Assembly (NCBI RefSeq): GCF_014302995.1
Contig: NZ_CP060295.1
Coordinates: 4,703,501-4,767,500, forward strand
Direction: 5' to 3'
Length of the DNA stretch: 64,000 nt
DNA from: Variovorax sp. PAMC26660
GTDB lineage: Bacteria; Pseudomonadota; Gammaproteobacteria; Burkholderiales; Burkholderiaceae_C
Shown here one piece after another: positions 33,361-41,020 of this stretch. A program made the translations under genes and the position numbers. Under the pieces are notes generated by a model. The model was not told the origin of the DNA. It searched no databases and saw nothing but the letters and a program-made list of their open reading frames with translations. How positions within the stretch are numbered: position 1 is the stretch's first letter; the number at the start of each line of letters is the position of its first letter.

Positions 33361-33454
33361 GTCTGTTGCTTTGCCGCGCGCAGGTTCGAGTGGGTGCACA
33401 GGATACCGGGTACCTACTTGCACCGCTGCCCTGCGCTCCGGGAGCATCGCAGCT

Positions 33455-34897
33455 TCAGTTCGTCGCCATGATCTCGTACACCGCGTGTGTGAAGCCTCCG
33501 ATCCCGATCAGCAGGAGCAGTAGCGAAGAGATCAGCAGCAGGCGTCGTTCCTGTGCGGGTCCGACCACGCGGCGTATCAGAAACGCGAGCAGGCCCAGCG
33601 TGGTGAAGTCGAGCACGATCCACAGGACCGTCAGCAATCCGAGGCTCTGATCCGGCGTCGGCAACACGCCGATGAACTGAGGCAGGAAGGACGCGAAAAA
33701 GATGATGTCCTTCGGATTCGATATGGCCAGCGTGAAGCCGCGAACGAACCCGGCCCGCGCGGGGATCGGGGCGGAGCCTTTGCCTGCGTCGCCGGGCGGT
33801 GCGCGCCAAGCCTCCCTGACCATCCCCAGCGCGATCCATGCGATGTAGAGGCAGCCGAACATCCGGACCAGGGAAAACACGGTTCCATCAATGACCAGCA
33901 GGCCCTTGATAAGCAGTGCCGACGCGAAGATGAGCACCAGCGATGCCGCGTTGGTGCCACAGATCGTTTGCATGGCGTGGCGCATGCCACCGGCCAGTCC
34001 GGCCCGAACCACCAGGAGGGTCACAGGGCCGGGCGTGACGAGCAGCGAGACCACCGACGTCATGTACAGCGCGGTCAGGGAAAAGTTGAGATCGCTCATG
34101 ATGATTCCTCGGTGTCTTGCTTGATGCGCAGCGGGCAGGCCAGGCTCATTCAATTGAAATTGCTTCCACTCGAAGTTGCCGTGCTCTCCGAAGAAGCCGA
34201 GTTCGGCGGGCACGAAGCCGGCGTTGTAGGCGCGCACGCGATCGCGGATCTTCTGTCGTACCAGCTGACCGCCTCGATCTTGGGCACTCGCGACGACGTC
34301 GAAGTTCTCGCGCGGATTGACGATCAGGTTCAGGTGGCTGCTCAGGCATCTGCTGCGCAGCGCACGGTGTGCCGGCGAACTGATATTGAAGAACAACTGC
34401 ACGCCATTGAAGCAGTACGTCCAAAGCGGATCGTTCGGATCCGTCGGAACGCCTGATGGCCAGGGCTGCCGATCGGCATCGAGCAGCCCCTGGAGCAGAT
34501 GCCACGCGTGGCGATGGTGAGCCTCGGCCTGATGACCGGGCGGATCCTCGACAAAGATGACAAGTGGCGAAAACAGTCGCTGATTGACCGGCGTCTGTTT
34601 CACGAACTCGGTGTACTCGATCAAGCCCTGATGAAGATCCTCGAGGCCTTGATCTTCAGCACGTCTGCAAAAGAGCAGGAATGCGCTTTTGTCCCGCCAG
34701 GCCCGGCGGCCGAAGAGGCAGGGAAACGCAGGATCGGAAAGCACTTCGTCCAGCTTGCGGAATGCGGTGAAGTGCCATTCGCGTCGGCCAAGCGCCAACT
34801 GTTCAATAACGCAATGATGCTGCAGTCGCCCGAAAGCGGCAGCTTGTGGCTGGGGCGGTAATGTGAATTTGGACATGACGAACGTGAGCAGACCCAT
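33455..34897 (-). CDS. YqcI/YcgG-family haem hydroxylase fused in frame to LysE-type exporter
   Basis: 480 residues. Residues about 10-260 match the YqcI/YcgG family (PF08892): FRKLDEVLSDPAFPCLFGRRAW, FNGVQLFFNISSPAHRALRS, IVNPRENFDVV and FEWKQF near its end. This family includes GntA, the haem-dependent hydroxylase of guanitoxin synthesis. Residues about 269-480 are a LysE/RhtB amino-acid exporter with six hydrophobic segments (TSVVSLLVTPGPVTLLVVRAG at its start). GGAGG precedes the ATG at 34897; a second ribosome site, GAGGAA, precedes the internal Met at the LysE start, so LysE may also be made alone. Last gene of the operon; it links hydroxylation with export of an amino-acid-like product. 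Confidence 0.78.
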   Translation of the reverse strand: MGLLTFVMSKFTLPPQPQAAAFGRLQHHCVIEQLALGRREWHFTAFRKLDEVLSDPAFPCLFGRRAWRDKSAFLLFCRRAEDQGLEDLHQGLIEYTEFVKQTPVNQRLFSPLVIFVEDPPGHQAEAHHRHAWHLLQGLLDADRQPWPSGVPTDPNDPLWTYCFNGVQLFFNISSPAHRALRSRCLSSHLNLIVNPRENFDVVASAQDRGGQLVRQKIRDRVRAYNAGFVPAELGFFGEHGNFEWKQFQLNEPGLPAAHQARHRGIIMSDLNFSLTALYMTSVVSLLVTPGPVTLLVVRAGLAGGMRHAMQTICGTNAASLVLIFASALLIKGLLVIDGTVFSLVRMFGCLYIAWIALGMVREAWRAPPGDAGKGSAPIPARAGFVRGFTLAISNPKDIIFFASFLPQFIGVLPTPDQSLGLLTVLWIVLDFTTLGLLAFLIRRVVGPAQERRLLLISSLLLLLIGIGGFTHAVYEIMATN

Positions 34898-34946
34898 CGA
34901 GGCCTCCCTCGATCAGTCATCCCTGGGCTTGTGGTGTGGTTGAGCG

Positions 34947-35972
34947 CTATGGCGCGCTGGACTCATCGATGCGCGCGCAGTGCAGCTCTTCCAGCCCCGC
35001 CAGCAATTCGCCGGGGCCCATCAGCTCGATGTCATGTCGTTCCAGCCAGTTGTCGTCGTAGAGCTGGTCGAGATAGTTCCAGCCCGAGTCCGCGACGATG
35101 CACAGCGCGCTTCTTGCGGAACCCAGATGAAGTTGCCTCAATGCCGAGAGAATGACTGCGCCGCTCGACCCGCCCAGCAACAGACCGGACGTTTTCGCCA
35201 GATGGCGGCACATCGAAAAAGCTTCGGTGTCGCCAATCAGCATGTATTCGTCCAGCACCGCCGTGTTGACGTTCCGGGTTCTCCAGCTCAGGCCCAGTCC
35301 GTTCATCAGGTGCGGCTTGTACTTCCCCTGGAAGATGGCTGACCCCATGGCATCGACCGCGACGATCTTCGTATTCGGCTTCTCGAGCTTCAGCTTTTCG
35401 GCGATGCCGCACAGGTGGCCGCCGGTGCTGACCGAGCCGATGACGGTATCGAATTCGACGTTCAGATCGAGAATTTCCTCCGCTGTCACATCGGAATGGA
35501 ATTTCCTGTTCGACGCGTTGTCGTATTGGTTGGGCCAGTACGCATCGGGAACCGTCTTCAACAGGTCCTGGACCTTCTTCAATCTCGTTCTTTGATACCC
35601 CCCGTTTTCATCCAGGGTATCCACGACGACCACCTGCGCGCCAAAAGCCTCGTAGATCGACAGATTCTGCCGGCTCACCTTGGGGTCGACGACGATGATG
35701 ACCTTGAAGCCCATGGCCGCCCCCAGCATCGCCAGCGACTTTCCCAGATTGCCGGAGGTCGATTCGATGATCGTGCTTCCTTCTTTCAATTGACCGGAAG
35801 CGATTCCAGCCAAGATCAACGCGTAGGCCGTCCGATCCTTGATGCTGCAGGTCGGATTGAAGGTCTCCATCTTCAGGTAAAGCGATTTACCTTTCGGAAT
35901 CAGATCGTTTTGAAGCCGCAGAACGGGCGTGTTTCCGATGATTTCGGGCAGGCTGGATCTTATTTTCAGCAT
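34947..35972 (-). CDS. PLP-dependent cysteine synthase/SbnA-like beta-replacement enzyme
   Basis: 341 residues. Fold type II PLP enzyme: the Schiff-base Lys45 is in NPTCSIKDRTAY, the substrate loop is STSGNLGKSLA, and a Gly-rich phosphate loop VSTGGHLCGIAEKLK follows. Whole-sequence style is closest to SbnA and other enzymes that replace the beta substituent of O-phospho- or O-acetyl-serine with an amine. The start overlaps the end of the oxidase gene by seven bases. No SbnB-type dehydrogenase is present, so the product is probably a beta-substituted alanine rather than free diaminopropionate. Confidence 0.82.
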   Translation of the reverse strand: MLKIRSSLPEIIGNTPVLRLQNDLIPKGKSLYLKMETFNPTCSIKDRTAYALILAGIASGQLKEGSTIIESTSGNLGKSLAMLGAAMGFKVIIVVDPKVSRQNLSIYEAFGAQVVVVDTLDENGGYQRTRLKKVQDLLKTVPDAYWPNQYDNASNRKFHSDVTAEEILDLNVEFDTVIGSVSTGGHLCGIAEKLKLEKPNTKIVAVDAMGSAIFQGKYKPHLMNGLGLSWRTRNVNTAVLDEYMLIGDTEAFSMCRHLAKTSGLLLGGSSGAVILSALRQLHLGSARSALCIVADSGWNYLDQLYDDNWLERHDIELMGPGELLAGLEELHCARIDESSAP

Positions 35973-36586
35973 TTGATCAGGAGCTCTTCGGCCTTGGGTG
36001 AGACCACGAAGGCCTGGTACATGCCTTCGTACATCTGGTAGAAAAGTCTGCTGGTGTGGTGGACGGCAAAAAGTGCCTCGTCCTGCATTTTTTTCGTGGT
36101 GCAGTATTCGGAAACGAGATTGAGGCCTTGCTGTACGTGGCCGACATCTTCCTTTCGATGGACGGAGAAAAATCTCAAATCCTGCTCGGTCAGTCCGTAG
36201 GTTCTACCGAACAAGCTGTCGCGCGCCTCGTGCGCTTCGTTTTCCAGATTCTGGCCTTCACTCGCGATCATTACTGCTGCAGCCCCGATGTGGTAATTGG
36301 AAGGGTCCTTCACCGCGTCCAGTCGGTAGCGAATAAGGTCGAGCGTGCTTTTCATTGGTTTGACGGCATCCCGCACGCTATCCGGCACTCCCAGTGCCTC
36401 GATGAAATCCGCCATCAATTCAATGTGATTTTTTGTCCGGGAGAGGCGGCCGGTTTCTTCTTCGTAGAGGTTCGTCAGGAGGAATCGCTTGTGCCTCGGC
36501 AATGGGCAATAAAAATAGAGATGCTCTATATAGCTGATGAAATGCTTGGTGACCTGATAGGCTTCCACGGCAACACTCTGCATCAA
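35966..36586 (-). CDS. Haem-oxygenase-like di-iron oxidase (HDO) domain, 5' part out of frame
   Basis: 206 residues as an intact frame. All-helical, with NLYEEETG (Glu42-44), TKNHIEL (His54) and the diagnostic HRKEDVGH (His143, Asp147, His150; HX3DX2H), the ligand pattern of HDO enzymes such as SznF, BesC, UndA and FlcD/E that perform N-oxygenation or oxidative C-C cleavage. The first helix is missing here: the frame stays open upstream to 36639, coding HPLFALFLDPERPNLR, and joins the GNAT frame if one base is added at 36635-36639. The complete gene is probably a GNAT-HDO fusion read from 37257. Confidence 0.8.
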   Translation of the reverse strand: MMQSVAVEAYQVTKHFISYIEHLYFYCPLPRHKRFLLTNLYEEETGRLSRTKNHIELMADFIEALGVPDSVRDAVKPMKSTLDLIRYRLDAVKDPSNYHIGAAAVMIASEGQNLENEAHEARDSLFGRTYGLTEQDLRFFSVHRKEDVGHVQQGLNLVSEYCTTKKMQDEALFAVHHTSRLFYQMYEGMYQAFVVSPKAEELLIKC

Positions 36587-36609
36587 CCTGAGATTCGGGC
36601 GTTCCGGAT

Positions 36610-37257
36610 CTAGGAAAAGAGCGAATAGAGGATGTTTTTCGCAATTTCCTGGTGCAGTGTGTTTTCCAGTTTTGCGCGAAAATCGCTTTTATTTTGCAGC
36701 ACGAGTTTTTCCCCTTTTTGACAATTTTTTCCCAAATCTTCCACGCGTTGATTCATGAAGTGCCCTACATGGCTCCTTCCGCCCGAGCGGGAGTAGTCCT
36801 GCAGGACTCCATGACTCTTGAAGCCGAAGTGCGTCCATACCTTGAATGCCCGTGAGTTCTCCCGCGTATCCAAGGTCAACAATTCGATATTTAGTGTTTT
36901 GGCTTTTTCGCAAATTTTCAGAAGAAGATTTGACAAAAGCGCTGTTCCACGCATTCTTGGTGTGATATAGCCCTTGCTCAGGTCGGCGATATGCATGTAA
37001 TTTCGATTTTGATTGATCCGCATGAAGGTCATCGCACACACGCCAGCTTCGTCGCGTGCGAGCAATATGCTGGCCGCCTTGTTCTGTAATTGCCACTCCC
37101 AGAATGCGAGAAATGCGTCAGCCTCCTCCCTCGAAAGGCGAGTGCTGTATCCGAGCATGCCGTCATCCCTGACACTTGCGTCGAGCATCTCGAGGATGGC
37201 GGCGCCATCTCTTTTCATATCCGATGGACTTCCTATCCAGTCATACGTCATGTTCAT
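36610..37257 (-). CDS. GNAT N-acetyltransferase, probably fused to the following oxidase
   Basis: 215 residues from the ATG at 37257, preceded by GGAGGAA; an upstream ATG at 37278 is less likely. The acetyl-CoA motif A is KGYITPRMRGTALLSNLLLK, and ENSRAFKVWTHFGFK is the C-terminal GNAT segment. After about residue 175 the sequence becomes DFRAKLENTLHQEIAK, which looks like the first helix of the oxidase rather than GNAT, then reaches a stop after IAKNILYSLFS. This is clear evidence for a one-base frameshift. AAGGGG before a GTG near 36705 could alternatively start the oxidase as a separate protein. Confidence 0.75.
   Translation of the reverse strand: MNMTYDWIGSPSDMKRDGAAILEMLDASVRDDGMLGYSTRLSREEADAFLAFWEWQLQNKAASILLARDEAGVCAMTFMRINQNRNYMHIADLSKGYITPRMRGTALLSNLLLKICEKAKTLNIELLTLDTRENSRAFKVWTHFGFKSHGVLQDYSRSGGRSHVGHFMNQRVEDLGKNCQKGEKLVLQNKSDFRAKLENTLHQEIAKNILYSLFS
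36635..36639 (-). other. Frameshift site between GNAT and oxidase frames
   Basis: On the coding strand this is a run of five A. The frame up to here (ending IAK) and the frame after it (beginning HPLFALFLDPERPN) differ by one base; adding one A gives a continuous reading frame of about 430 codons from 37257 to 35966. Confidence 0.7.
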
Positions 37258-37372
37258 GATTGATTCCTCCGCTGTCATTTGAATGGTGGTTCAGACGCCT
37301 GATTTATTGAGTCATCGGGCTCGCCATCGCGAAAAGAATTTTTCTTTTTCGTGACCTGCGATTGGCGCAAGG

Positions 37373-38497
37373 TCAGGATTTCGGGCCGAGAAGCGCTGTT
37401 TTCGTCGAGGTTTTTCGCTCGACGGCCCAGAGCCACAGCGTCGAGCCGAAGGCCACTGCCACGAAAGGCAGGATGACCCAGTTCACCGCCTCCCAGCCCT
37501 TGTTGTCGAACAAGGCCCCGGCGAGCAGGGAGCCGATGGCCACTGCCGCGAAAGTGATGAACTCATTGGCAGCTTGCGCTCGGGCCCGAATTGCCGCGGG
37601 AGCGCTGGAGAACCTCTGGGCCAGCAGCGTTGTCCCGCCGACGAACATGAAATTCCACGCCAGCCCATTCAACGCCAATGCCAGCCGGAAATGGAGCAAG
37701 GCTGTCCCGGCCAGTGCCGCCACGCTGCCAATGGCGAACAAGACGGCACCTGTCAGAAGAATCTTGATCACGCCCCAGCGGGCAATCAGCTTTCCCGTGA
37801 AAAAACTCGGGACAAACATGCTCAGCAGATGCCATTGAATGACCGACGCAGCTTCACCCACCGAGAAGCCGCATGACACGACCGCCAGCGGCGTCGCGGT
37901 CATCACGAAAATCATGACGGCGTAGCCCAGCGCACTGTTGCTGACGGCCACGACGAATCGAGGATTGCGCGCAGTGGAAAGGAATGACACTGAGAGATCC
38001 GAGCTGGAAGCAGATGCGATCTGGGTGAATTTCAAGCCGGACAGCACGGCCACCGACGTCATGGCCAATCCCAGGACCACGAGATACGAGCCGGCAAAGG
38101 TATGCGGAGCCAATGCGTCCCGCGCCCACGCTGCCAAGGTCGGTCCTGCAACTGCTGCGACAACACCTCCGCCGATGACGATGCTGATGGCCTGAGACTT
38201 GAAATGATCGGCGGCCGATTCAGTCGCTGCGAATCGATAGTATTGCGCGCAGGCTTGATAGAGGCCCAGCAGCATATTGGCGGCACAGAACAAAGGGAAG
38301 TTGCCCTGCACGATGGCCCAGGTCGCCAAGCCCCCGCCCAATGCGCCAAAGGCGGCGCCCGATGCAAACAGCGGCTTTCGTCCCCAGCGAGCCATGGCCA
38401 GGGACACTGGGATGGTGCTCAAGGCGGTGGCCACTGTCACCAGCGCAAATGGGAGCGTGGCCAGACTTCGCGTTGGAGCCAGCATCGCTCCCACCAA
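37373..38497 (-). CDS. MFS transporter, N terminus displaced by frameshift
   Basis: 374 residues from a TTG, with eleven evident membrane segments; motif-A-like MARWGRKPLFASG is present between the second and third helices of the complete protein. The first helix is missing, but the same frame continues upstream without stop and codes RNVAVLAVCQALYVCASAIG, a typical first MFS helix. That region has no ATG in frame. If the A-run at 38574-38579 had seven instead of six A, an ATG at 38601 would give MHAKFLLEKNRNVAVLAV and a normal MFS protein. First gene of the cluster operon; likely exporter or self-resistance pump. Confidence 0.75.
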   Translation of the reverse strand: MVGAMLAPTRSLATLPFALVTVATALSTIPVSLAMARWGRKPLFASGAAFGALGGGLATWAIVQGNFPLFCAANMLLGLYQACAQYYRFAATESAADHFKSQAISIVIGGGVVAAVAGPTLAAWARDALAPHTFAGSYLVVLGLAMTSVAVLSGLKFTQIASASSSDLSVSFLSTARNPRFVVAVSNSALGYAVMIFVMTATPLAVVSCGFSVGEAASVIQWHLLSMFVPSFFTGKLIARWGVIKILLTGAVLFAIGSVAALAGTALLHFRLALALNGLAWNFMFVGGTTLLAQRFSSAPAAIRARAQAANEFITFAAVAIGSLLAGALFDNKGWEAVNWVILPFVAVAFGSTLWLWAVERKTSTKTALLGPKS

Positions 38498-38573
38498 ACC
38501 CGTGAGCGTCAGTCCTATCGCGGAGGCACATACATACAGGGCTTGGCATACAGCCAGAACGGCGACGTTCCGA

Positions 38574-38579
38574 TTTTTT
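38574..38579 (-). other. Frameshift site in MFS transporter 5' end
   Basis: A run of six A on the coding strand. The ATG at 38601 and the transporter frame are out of register by one base; one extra A here would join them. The interval from the ATG to the transporter frame has the expected coding content in both parts. Confidence 0.65.
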
Positions 38580-38661
38580 CGAGAAGAAATTTCGCATGCA
38601 TAGCCCTGAGCTTATGCAAAGGAAGTACCTTGAAACTGCCGAGATGACCGCAAAATCCGCC

Positions 38662-39690
38662 ATGACACTCAAGAAAATATTTAACAAATGTGAATTGCCG
38701 CGCACCGTGGTTGTGCTTGCTTATGACGGATGCCAATCATTGGATGTCAGTGGTCCCTGGGAGGTTTTCACAAAGGCTTCGAAATTTTCTCTGGCAGCAG
38801 GATTGTTGCAAACATATCAATTGATATTGGCATCGCCGCAGGGTGGGCCGATACAAAGCAATTCGGGACTGCAGTGGAGGAATTCCAGGGCAATCGTTGA
38901 TATTCAAGAGAACATCGACACCATTTTGGTCGCGGGCGGTGATATCGATGTCATCGAGGGGAAGGAAATGGCGGAGACCCTGTTTCCTTGGCTTCGCTGC
39001 AAGACGGGCAGTGTCCGGCGCATTGGCAGCGTGTGCACAGGTGCATTCGCGCTGGCGGCAGCAGGATTGCTCGACGGACGCCGCGCCACAACCCACTGGA
39101 ATTCATGCGCGAAACTGGCGATGAATTACCCCAAGGTGAAAATCGAGCCCGATGCCATCTACGTCATGGATCCCCCGTTCTACAGTTCGGCGGGAATTTC
39201 CGCGGCCATCGATTTGTCGCTTGCCTTGGTGGAAGCCGATCTGGGGCGACCCATTGCCTTGTCGGTCGCGCAGGAGCTGGTCCTCTATCTGCGCCGTCCC
39301 GGCGGACAGTCTCAGTTCTCCCCGGGCTTGCAGGCTCAGATGGACGCACGGCATCCGTTGCGCGATCTGGTGACCTGGATGCTGGAGCATCCCCGAGGCG
39401 ACCTGAGCGTTGCAGCGCTCGCGGAAAGGATGGCCATGAGCACGCGTCACTTTGCCCGCCAGTTTCGCGCTGAAACGGGCGAGACTCCTGCGCGCTTTGT
39501 CGAAAGGCTTCGGCTCGATTGCGCCAAGAGCTATCTGGAGCGGACGCCCTGGCCGCTGGAGCGCGTGGCGCAACGCGCAGGCTTCGGCTCTGTCGACAGT
39601 CTTCAACGAAGCCTGCGACGCCATGCGGGGACGACACCCGAGCTGTATCGACAGCGATTTGCCTCGACCTTGCTATCTCGGGATGGTTGA
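38662..39690 (+). CDS. GlxA-type AraC family regulator (DJ-1/PfpI-like plus HTH)
   Basis: 342 residues from the ATG at 38662 (MTLKKIF); in-frame ATGs at 38596, 38614 and 38644 are alternatives, but the first would overlap the divergent transporter start. The N-terminal DJ-1/PfpI-like domain runs from RTVVVLAYDGCQSLDVSGPWE to RIGSVCTGAFALAAAGLLDGRRATTHW, with the conserved Cys in SVCTGAF. The C-terminal AraC domain has LAERMAMSTRHFARQFRAE and LERVAQRAGFGSVDSLQRS. It is divergent from the operon of MFS, GNAT-oxidase, PLP enzyme and hydroxylase-exporter, and probably activates it. Confidence 0.85.
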   Translation: MTLKKIFNKCELPRTVVVLAYDGCQSLDVSGPWEVFTKASKFSLAAGLLQTYQLILASPQGGPIQSNSGLQWRNSRAIVDIQENIDTILVAGGDIDVIEGKEMAETLFPWLRCKTGSVRRIGSVCTGAFALAAAGLLDGRRATTHWNSCAKLAMNYPKVKIEPDAIYVMDPPFYSSAGISAAIDLSLALVEADLGRPIALSVAQELVLYLRRPGGQSQFSPGLQAQMDARHPLRDLVTWMLEHPRGDLSVAALAERMAMSTRHFARQFRAETGETPARFVERLRLDCAKSYLERTPWPLERVAQRAGFGSVDSLQRSLRRHAGTTPELYRQRFASTLLSRDG

Positions 39691-39709
39691 GTCGCGCGTC
39701 GACCGCCTG

Positions 39710-41020
39710 CTAAGCGGCCGCCTTTTCCGCGACCTTGAGCGCGCGCTTCAGATCGTCGATCAGGTCGGCCGGATCTTCGAGGCCGATCGACAGGCGGATC
39801 GTGCCTTGCGAAATGCCCGCGCCCGCCAGCGCCTCGTCGGTCATGCGGAAGTGCGTGGTGCTCGCCGGGTGAATCACCAGGCTGCGGCAGTCACCCACAT
39901 TGGCCAGGTGGCTGAACAGCTTCAGCGCCTCGATGAACGCCTTGCCCTGCGCACGGCTGCCCTTGATGTCGAAGCTGAACACCGCGCCGGCCCCACGCGC
40001 ACCGTGGCGCAGCAGCTTTTGCGCAAGCGCATGGCTCGGGTGCGATTCGATCAGCGGATGTCCCACGCGCGACACGAAAGGATGACTGACCAGGAATTCG
40101 ACCACCTTCTGCGTGTTGCCAATATGCCGCTCCATGCGCAGCGGCAGCGTTTCGATGCCCTGCAGGATCAGCCACGCCGTGTGCGGGCTCATCGAGGCGC
40201 CGAAGTCGCGAAGGCCTTCGCGGCGGGCGCGCAGCAGGAACGCGCCCACCGTGCTTTCCTCGCTGAAGACCATGTTGTGGAAGCCGTCGTAGGCCTGCGT
40301 CAGCTCGGCGAATTTGCCGGACTTTTCCCAGTCGAAGCTGCCGCCATCGACCACCACGCCGCCGATCACCGTGCCATGGCCCGACAGGAACTTGGTCGCC
40401 GAGTGATAGACCAGGTCGGCGCCCCAGTCGAAGGGCTTGATCAGGTAGGGCGAGGTGAGCGTGGAGTCGACCAGCAGCGGCACGCCGGCTTCGTGCGCGA
40501 TGTCGCTCACGGCCGGGATGTCCAGCACGTCGAGCCCGGGGTTGCCCACGGTTTCGCCGAAGAAGAGCTTGGTCTCGGGCCGCACGGCCGCGCGCCAGGC
40601 GTCGAGGTCGCCGGGCTTGACGAAGGTGGTGTCGATGCCGAAGCGCCGCATCGTGTAGTGCAGCAGGTTCTGCGAGCCGCCGTACAGCGCCGTGCTGGCC
40701 ACGATGTGCGAGCCCGCGCCCATCAGCGTGGCGACCGACAGGTGCAGCGCTGCCTGGCCGCTGGCGGTGGCAATGGCGCCGATGCCGCCTTCGAGCGCCG
40801 ACACGCGCTGCTCGAACACGGCGTTGGTCGGGTTGCTGATGCGCGAATACACATGGCCCGCGCGTTCCAGGTTGAAGAGCGCCGCCGCATGGTCGCTGGA
40901 CTCGAAGACGAAGGAGGTGGTCAGGTGGATCGGCACCGCCCGCGCGCCGGTGGCGGGGTCGGGTGCGGCGCCGGCGTGCAGCGCAAGGGTGTCGAAACCG
41001 GGGTCGGAATAACCGGGCAT
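39710..41020 (-). CDS. metY: O-acetylhomoserine sulfhydrylase
   Basis: 436 residues, the usual length of MetY. PLP-binding motifs: SRISNPTNAVFE, ASGQAALHLS, and the Schiff-base Lys210 in VYHSATKFLSGHGT. It converts O-acetyl-L-homoserine and sulfide to homocysteine in direct-sulfhydrylation methionine synthesis. Starts MPGYSDPGFDTLALHAG, typical of the family. It diverges from the CBS protein gene, and faces the regulator gene at its 3' end. Confidence 0.94.
   Translation of the reverse strand: MPGYSDPGFDTLALHAGAAPDPATGARAVPIHLTTSFVFESSDHAAALFNLERAGHVYSRISNPTNAVFEQRVSALEGGIGAIATASGQAALHLSVATLMGAGSHIVASTALYGGSQNLLHYTMRRFGIDTTFVKPGDLDAWRAAVRPETKLFFGETVGNPGLDVLDIPAVSDIAHEAGVPLLVDSTLTSPYLIKPFDWGADLVYHSATKFLSGHGTVIGGVVVDGGSFDWEKSGKFAELTQAYDGFHNMVFSEESTVGAFLLRARREGLRDFGASMSPHTAWLILQGIETLPLRMERHIGNTQKVVEFLVSHPFVSRVGHPLIESHPSHALAQKLLRHGARGAGAVFSFDIKGSRAQGKAFIEALKLFSHLANVGDCRSLVIHPASTTHFRMTDEALAGAGISQGTIRLSIGLEDPADLIDDLKRALKVAEKAAA

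What the first reader, a model, noticed from the sequence alone, without database searches (positions are those of the whole stretch)
33455..39690. Unrecognised biosynthetic operon pairing a di-iron oxidase, a PLP beta-replacement enzyme and a YqcI/YcgG haem hydroxylase with two exporters
Seen: in one transcription direction, MFS transporter, GNAT joined to an HDO oxidase (HX3DX2H), SbnA/cysteine-synthase-like PLP enzyme, YqcI/YcgG protein fused to LysE; a divergent GlxA/AraC regulator. Known: HDO enzymes perform N-oxygenation (SznF, FlcD/E type) or oxidative C-C cleavage; YqcI/YcgG includes the haem hydroxylase GntA of guanitoxin synthesis; SbnA-type enzymes build beta-substituted alanines. 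Inference: together they could build an N-hydroxylated, nitro or related beta-substituted amino acid (antimetabolite, metallophore or signal) that is exported by LysE and MFS. I know no characterised pathway with this set.
Basis: partly seen in the sequence, partly recalled or inferred. Interest (0 to 1): 0.88.

Follow-up and report, generated by a model that had tools for sequence, protein, structure and literature searches.

The report
Acquired composite amino-acid biosynthesis island
A short stretch of foreign DNA joins three gene sets that also occur apart: an amino-acid-modifying oxidase set that belongs to an apparently unstudied pathway family of many bacteria, a heme enzyme with its own exporter, and a regulator with an exporter; this copy looks partly broken.

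Summary
The named genes are present. They form a 6.35-kb low-GC island (33364-39717) whose flanks abut in 6 of 8 congeneric genomes compared. Relatives show three modules that also occur apart: (A) GlxA/AraC-MFS divergent pair; (B) GNAT + heme-oxygenase-fold di-iron oxidase (HDO) + SbnA-like PLP enzyme; (C) YqcI/YcgG + LysE. B is a conserved cassette: of 57 loci with the same HDO subfamily, 56 have the GNAT and 54 an amino-carboxy-alkyl-transfer enzyme: MetZ-like (33), nicotianamine-synthase-like (12) or SbnA-like (11; two loci have both of the last). In 23 distant-HDO control loci: GNAT 0, PLP match 2, others 0. YqcI is in 0 of the 57. The PLP enzyme keeps SbnA's O-phosphoserine-selectivity residues, unlike CysK/CysM. 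In this assembly HDO and MFS lack one intact frame and YqcI runs into LysE, so the copy may be decaying. I infer that HDO and GNAT oxidise and acylate an amino-carboxy-alkyl adduct; the product is unknown. The one-pathway reading rests on this island alone.

The parts
33364..39717 (.). inserted island, GC 0.575 against 0.67 in the flanks
   Evidence: flanks abut within about 10 bases in 6 of 8 congeneric genomes compared, about 340-360 bp between them in the other 2; GC, no direct repeat of 8 bp or more between the ends
38596..39690 (+). module A: GlxA/AraC-type regulator
   Evidence: PF01965 + PF12833; homology to Achromobacter GlxA from 38707
37373..38572 (-). module A: MFS transporter; no ATG/GTG/TTG start found upstream of 38497
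   Evidence: PF07690; 45-48% identity to MFS beside GlxA on Variovorax and Achromobacter plasmids; frame
36610..37278 (-). module B: GNAT N-acetyltransferase; its frame runs on into the HDO N-terminal coding region
   Evidence: PF00583 at cut-off; same GNAT in 56 of 57 HDO loci
35966..36634 (-). module B: heme-oxygenase-fold di-iron oxidase (HDO), main frame; N-terminal part lies in another frame
34947..35972 (-). module B: SbnA-like fold-type II PLP enzyme
   Evidence: SbnA best solved relative, E 8e-62; R/Y/S residues
34112..34897 (-). module C: YqcI/YcgG thiolate-heme guanidine N-hydroxylase type protein
   Evidence: PF08892; AglA E 6e-26 with C44, F152, R166, R179, F182 kept
33455..34090 (-). 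module C: LysE-type exporter, in one frame with YqcI here
   Evidence: PF01810; homology to Thioclava and Pantoea LysE from 34063/34090

Best explanation
A recently acquired composite island. SHOWN: an insertion in this genome; a GNAT-HDO-PLP core belonging to a widespread cassette family; YqcI-LysE and GlxA-MFS pairs that also occur alone; disturbed frames in HDO and MFS and a missing stop between YqcI and LysE. INFERRED, for the core as it works in intact relatives: an amino-carboxy-alkyl transferase first builds an adduct. Here that is the SbnA-like enzyme, adding the 2-amino-2-carboxyethyl group of O-phosphoserine to a nucleophile; elsewhere a MetZ-like or nicotianamine-synthase-like enzyme adds a 3-amino-3-carboxypropyl group. 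The HDO then oxidises the adduct with O2, most likely by N-oxygenation, and the GNAT acylates the new hydroxylamine or amine, giving a hydroxamate-like small amino acid that is exported. INFERRED for YqcI-LysE: a self-contained pair that N-hydroxylates a guanidine, probably arginine, and exports the product; in this island it may or may not feed the PLP enzyme.
For: Insertion. Cassette: GNAT 56 of 57, one of three amino-carboxy-alkyl-transfer enzymes in 54 of 57, control 0 and 2 of 23; GNAT-HDO fusions in 8 of 49 loci and one HDO-NAS-GNAT polypeptide. NAS-like partner: thermonicotianamine synthase E 1e-38, CntL E 2e-12, same fold. PLP donor: SbnA residues kept in 12 of 12 SbnA-like enzymes (roles in PMC12414870 passages). 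HDO: ligand columns invariant; N-oxygenase HrmI among the closest folds. Modules apart: YqcI-LysE in 4 of 8 plasmid loci opened; GlxA-MFS in 2 of 2 opened; YqcI in 0 of 57 HDO loci. Uneven GC of the pieces, 0.49-0.63.
Against: The reaction of this HDO subfamily is not shown: CADD, UndA and FlcD are as near in fold as HrmI. The GNAT is at its Pfam cut-off and could be for self-protection (weak ArsN1-type score). A MetZ-like enzyme may simply make homocysteine. SbnB, which completes the SbnA route (recalled), is absent nearby. The probes come from the group itself, so unlike GNATs could be missed in the control. All genes sit on one island with short gaps, which also suits one pathway.
Confidence: 0.4

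Rival explanations
1. One pathway, on D-cycloserine-like logic: YqcI N-hydroxylates arginine, the N-hydroxyguanidine or a fragment of it is the nucleophile for the PLP enzyme, HDO and GNAT modify the beta-substituted alanine, and LysE/MFS export it.
For: Same strand and short gaps from MFS to LysE; all on one island; YqcI keeps AglA guanidine-gating residues; DcsA of D-cycloserine is a YqcI/YcgG protein (passages of PMC10849742 and PMC8976061).
Against: YqcI in 0 of 57 related HDO loci; YqcI-LysE occurs alone; no arginase, racemase or ATP-grasp gene among the island's seven genes; GC differs between the pieces.
Confidence: 0.2
2. A decaying island without function now: HDO and MFS are pseudogenes and YqcI-LysE is damaged in this strain.
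For: Frames; no clear split among 19 flanking window frames matched by congener genes (a rough test), so generally poor sequence is an unlikely cause.
Confidence: 0.35
3. The HDO works like FlcE: it oxidatively decarboxylates an S- or N-substituted amino acid made by the PLP enzyme to an oxime, and the GNAT is a self-protection N-acetyltransferase.
For: FlcE acts on S-succinylcysteine, a beta-substituted alanine (PMC11363339 passages); GNAT scores weakly with the ArsN1 model (26 bits vs 170).
Confidence: 0.2

Closest known systems
CADD/PabS self-sacrificing p-aminobenzoate synthases (HDO superfamily)
   Different: CADD family cut-off not reached (71 vs 200 bits); four-residue insertion between the first Glu and His ligands; always with GNAT and an amino-acid-building enzyme
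HrmI lysine N-oxygenase (HDO)
   Different: 11% identity over the aligned part
Fluopsin C pathway (FlcB/FlcE/FlcD)
   Same: logic: make a substituted amino acid, then oxidise it with an HDO (PMC11363339 passages)
   Different: adduct made by FlcB from cysteine and fumarate; two HDOs; no GNAT named in the passages seen
SbnA (2,3-diaminopropionate route)
   Same: best solved relative (E 8e-62); O-phosphoserine-selectivity residues kept
   Different: SbnA model cut-off not reached (312 vs 350); no SbnB-type gene nearby
AglA/DcsA/ChmN/GntA guanidine N-hydroxylases (YqcI/YcgG)
   Same: AglA E 6e-26, axial Cys and gating residues kept
   Different: paired with LysE in a module that occurs alone; GntA cut-off not reached (41 vs 145)
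CntL / nicotianamine synthase (partner in related loci, not in the window)
   Same: NAS-like partner in 12 of 57 related loci
   Different: fused to GNAT in L092-L096 and to HDO and GNAT in L090

Membership tests
HDO superfamily | conserved Glu/His/Asp dimetal ligand set incl. HX3DX2H | tested here: met
   E42, E43, H54, E110, H143, D147, H150 in 47 of 47, E44 in 46 of 47; which of E43/E44 binds metal is not settled
CADD/PabS | curated model cut-off TIGR04305 | tested here: not met
   71 vs 200 bits
CADD/PabS | self-sacrificing Tyr/Lys residues | not tested
   not examined
SbnA | O-phosphoserine-selectivity residues R132/Y152/S185 | tested here: met
   R130/Y150/S182
SbnA | curated model cut-off TIGR03945 | tested here: not met
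   312.4 vs 349.95 bits
SbnA | SbnB-type partner (PF02423) nearby | tested here: not met
   4 matches in the genome, nearest about 1.8 Mb away
Ordinary cysteine synthase (CysK/CysM) | curated cut-offs; Phe and Gly at the SbnA Y152 and S185 positions | tested here: not met
   219 vs 351 and 155 vs 394 bits; Y and S instead
YqcI/YcgG heme enzymes | PF08892 cut-off and axial Cys | tested here: met
   165.7 vs 27 bits; C60 aligned to AglA C44
YqcI/YcgG heme enzymes | heme binding and guanidine N-hydroxylation | not testable with these tools
   needs protein
GntA guanitoxin hydroxylase | equivalog cut-off NF041366 | tested here: not met
   41.4 vs 145 bits
D-cycloserine pathway | hydroxyarginase, racemase and ATP-grasp genes in the cluster (recalled) | tested here: not met
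   none among the island's genes; rest of the genome not searched
SznF/graminine N-nitrosation | cupin domain fused to the HDO (PMC10849742 passages) | tested here: not met
   HDO frame holds only PF14518
GNAT-HDO cassette (group defined here) | GNAT and an amino-carboxy-alkyl transferase beside the HDO | tested here: met
   window has GNAT and SbnA-like; 56 and 54 of 57 in the group

The most novel reading that the evidence does not exclude
The GNAT-HDO cassette is an undiscovered, widely spread class of small-molecule pathway in which a di-iron oxidase acts on opine- or nicotianamine-like amino-carboxy-alkyl adducts and a GNAT acylates the N-oxygenated product. PLP beta-replacement, PLP gamma-replacement and SAM-dependent aminobutyryl transfer would be interchangeable suppliers of the adduct, and the products new metallophores or antimetabolites.
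Probability: 0.3. Interest if true: 0.82.

Novelty: new variant of a known kind. Interest (0 to 1): 0.6.

Why it matters
It corrects a five-enzyme pathway idea to a modular one. It also exposes a conserved GNAT-HDO pathway family in seven phyla (my reading of the record titles) for which my searches found no description. The swap among three unrelated enzymes that do the same kind of chemistry, adding an amino-acid-bearing alkyl group, predicts what the HDO acts on and makes its function directly testable. The YqcI-LysE pair suggests a minimal two-gene hydroxy-guanidine producer and exporter, also not found in the held papers.

Tried and rejected
Ordinary cysteine synthase: rejected. D-cycloserine, guanitoxin and graminine pathways: genes missing from the island or cut-offs not met. 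BesC-like lysine chemistry: BesC is a weak relative (profile E 4e-5). Plasmid relatives of the HDO: none. YqcI relatives: 7 of 300 genomes of the order at E 1e-3, the window's own included; in the phylum sample only the own genome of 299 at E 1e-15. HDO in the order: 18 of 200 genomes at E 1e-3, own included, the others weak (45 bits or less). My first frameshift control was spoiled by antisense shadow frames and is not used; one search is better but rough. Promoter/terminator scan: nothing above shuffled sequence. Whether CADD-like self-sacrifice residues are kept was not tested. Whether YqcI-LysE is common on chromosomes was not measured. Literature: the listings (one open-access library; 11 of 14, 25 of 388, 4 of 4, 16 of 20, 2 of 2, 12 of 12 and 3 of 3 papers listed) showed no title or abstract on a GNAT-HDO-PLP/NAS cassette or a YqcI-LysE pair; I opened eight of all the papers listed, none whole. 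The single 'LysE' match in PMC8976061 was the word 'lysed'. One search was a side search on the plasmid operon noted in passing and gave nothing used.
Full report
OBSERVATION. Minus strand: MFS, GNAT, HDO, a fold-type II PLP enzyme, and one 480-aa frame holding YqcI/YcgG followed by LysE. Plus strand: a GlxA/AraC-type regulator. The window lies in a one-contig 7.39-Mb genome. I fetched the matching region from 8 of the 40 congeneric genomes found. In 6 the two flanks (window 33363 and 39718) abut within about ten bases; in 2 there are about 340-360 bp between them. So the finding is an inserted island of 6.35 kb, GC 0.575 against 0.67 on either side, without a direct repeat of 8 bp or more between its ends.

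FRAMES. tblastn with relatives puts the HDO from its residue 23-24 in one frame (36634 downwards). Its first ~20 residues match in the GNAT frame at 36643-36702 with two of four probes, weakly but colinearly. MFS homology reaches 38572, yet the frame has no ATG/GTG/TTG before 38497. YqcI homology ends at 34133-34139 and the frame continues into LysE, whereas Thioclava, Pantoea and Priestia plasmids have separate genes. Among 19 window frames in the flanks matched by congener genes I saw no clear split (a rough test), so generally poor sequence is an unlikely cause; reads were not available. Relatives with intact genes exist.

MODULE B. The HDO is rare: strong relatives in 3 of 298 other genomes of the family and, at E 1e-20, in 1 of 273 other genomes of the class sample (two copies). 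One scan of the species collection gave 80 loci, the best of 180 confirmed stretches. I used the 57 with 40% identity or more over most of the query (L042-L097, L099) and kept the other 23 as a control. Some of the 57 are redundant (L088 and L091 come from one MAG; L053 and L099 give the same distances and nearly the same scores). Within 6 kb of the HDO: GNAT in 56 of 57, MetZ-like PLP in 33, SbnA-like in 11, nicotianamine-synthase-like in 12 (two loci have both of the last two), none of these three in 3; another MFS family in 35, GlxA/AraC-type regulator in 28, AMP-ligase-like in 17, Amidohydro_2-like in 15, dienelactone-hydrolase-like in 15; LysE-like in 1; YqcI in 0. Control: GNAT 0, MetZ-like 0, NAS-like 0, PLP match 2 of 23. 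The probes come from the group, so other GNATs could be missed in the control. GNAT and HDO share one open frame in 8 of 49 loci with both on one strand; in L090 HDO, NAS-like and GNAT form one 744-aa frame. Two MetZ-like enzymes scanned score just under and just over the O-succinylhomoserine sulfhydrylase cut-off (509 and 532 vs 522 bits). A profile of 11 of the 12 NAS-like proteins matches thermonicotianamine synthase (E 1e-38) and CntL (E 2e-12); PF03059 is matched at E 0.1 or better by 11 of 11; a model of one (pLDDT 88) has these as its best fold matches. What these three enzyme kinds share is transfer of an amino-carboxy-alkyl group to a nucleophile (family knowledge). That is why I place HDO and GNAT downstream of such an adduct.

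PLP ENZYME. Best solved relative SbnA. R130, Y150 and S182 match SbnA R132, Y152 and S185, said to select O-phosphoserine (PMC12414870 passages). All 12 SbnA-like enzymes compared (window + 11) keep them; E. coli CysK and CysM have A/F/G. The SbnA cut-off is not reached. Of the genome's 4 PF02423 (SbnB-type) matches the nearest is about 1.8 Mb away.

MODULE C. The YqcI part matches AglA structures (E 6e-26) with C44, F152, R166, R179 and F182 kept (roles from abstract, introduction and first results of PMC12866846, part 1 of 7). Two further heme-propionate positions (K196, R200) read as Arg and Arg in the alignment; the columns printed for them are one residue off. Of 50 plasmid records with a match I opened 8: LysE adjoins YqcI in 4 and an amino acid permease in 2.

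MODULE A. The regulator scores 211 and 207 bits against the GlxA beside an MFS on a Variovorax and an Achromobacter plasmid, and at most 143 bits against regulators of the 57 loci; the MFS is 45 and 48% identical. I opened 2 of 229 plasmid records with an MFS match. So this pair also occurs alone.

VERDICT. Genes right, single-pathway reading weakened. The island is composite and possibly decaying; its core belongs to an apparently undescribed cassette family. Absence from print rests on the listings in one open-access library.

Noticed in passing
L161-L164 (plasmids of Chimaeribacter, Sphingobium, Staphylococcus epidermidis, Macrococcus): PLP enzymes 45-53% identical to the window's sit in a recurring operon: 4-hydroxyphenylacetate-3-hydroxylase-like, NUDIX, Xaa-Pro peptidase-like, PLP, then PyrD and/or PyrE, often with a TIGR00730 protein; one literature search gave nothing.
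   Followed up: partly
L090:5919-8153: One 744-aa frame holding HDO, a nicotianamine-synthase-like domain and GNAT in a cyanobacterial MAG.
   Followed up: partly
L060, L066, L071, L074-L077: GNAT-HDO-SbnA genes inside larger loci with AMP ligase and amidohydrolase genes; NRPS-like long frames follow.
   Followed up: no
L135, L136 (Rhizobiales plasmids): YqcI/YcgG gene followed by an amino acid permease and a radical SAM gene: another recurring YqcI context.
   Followed up: no
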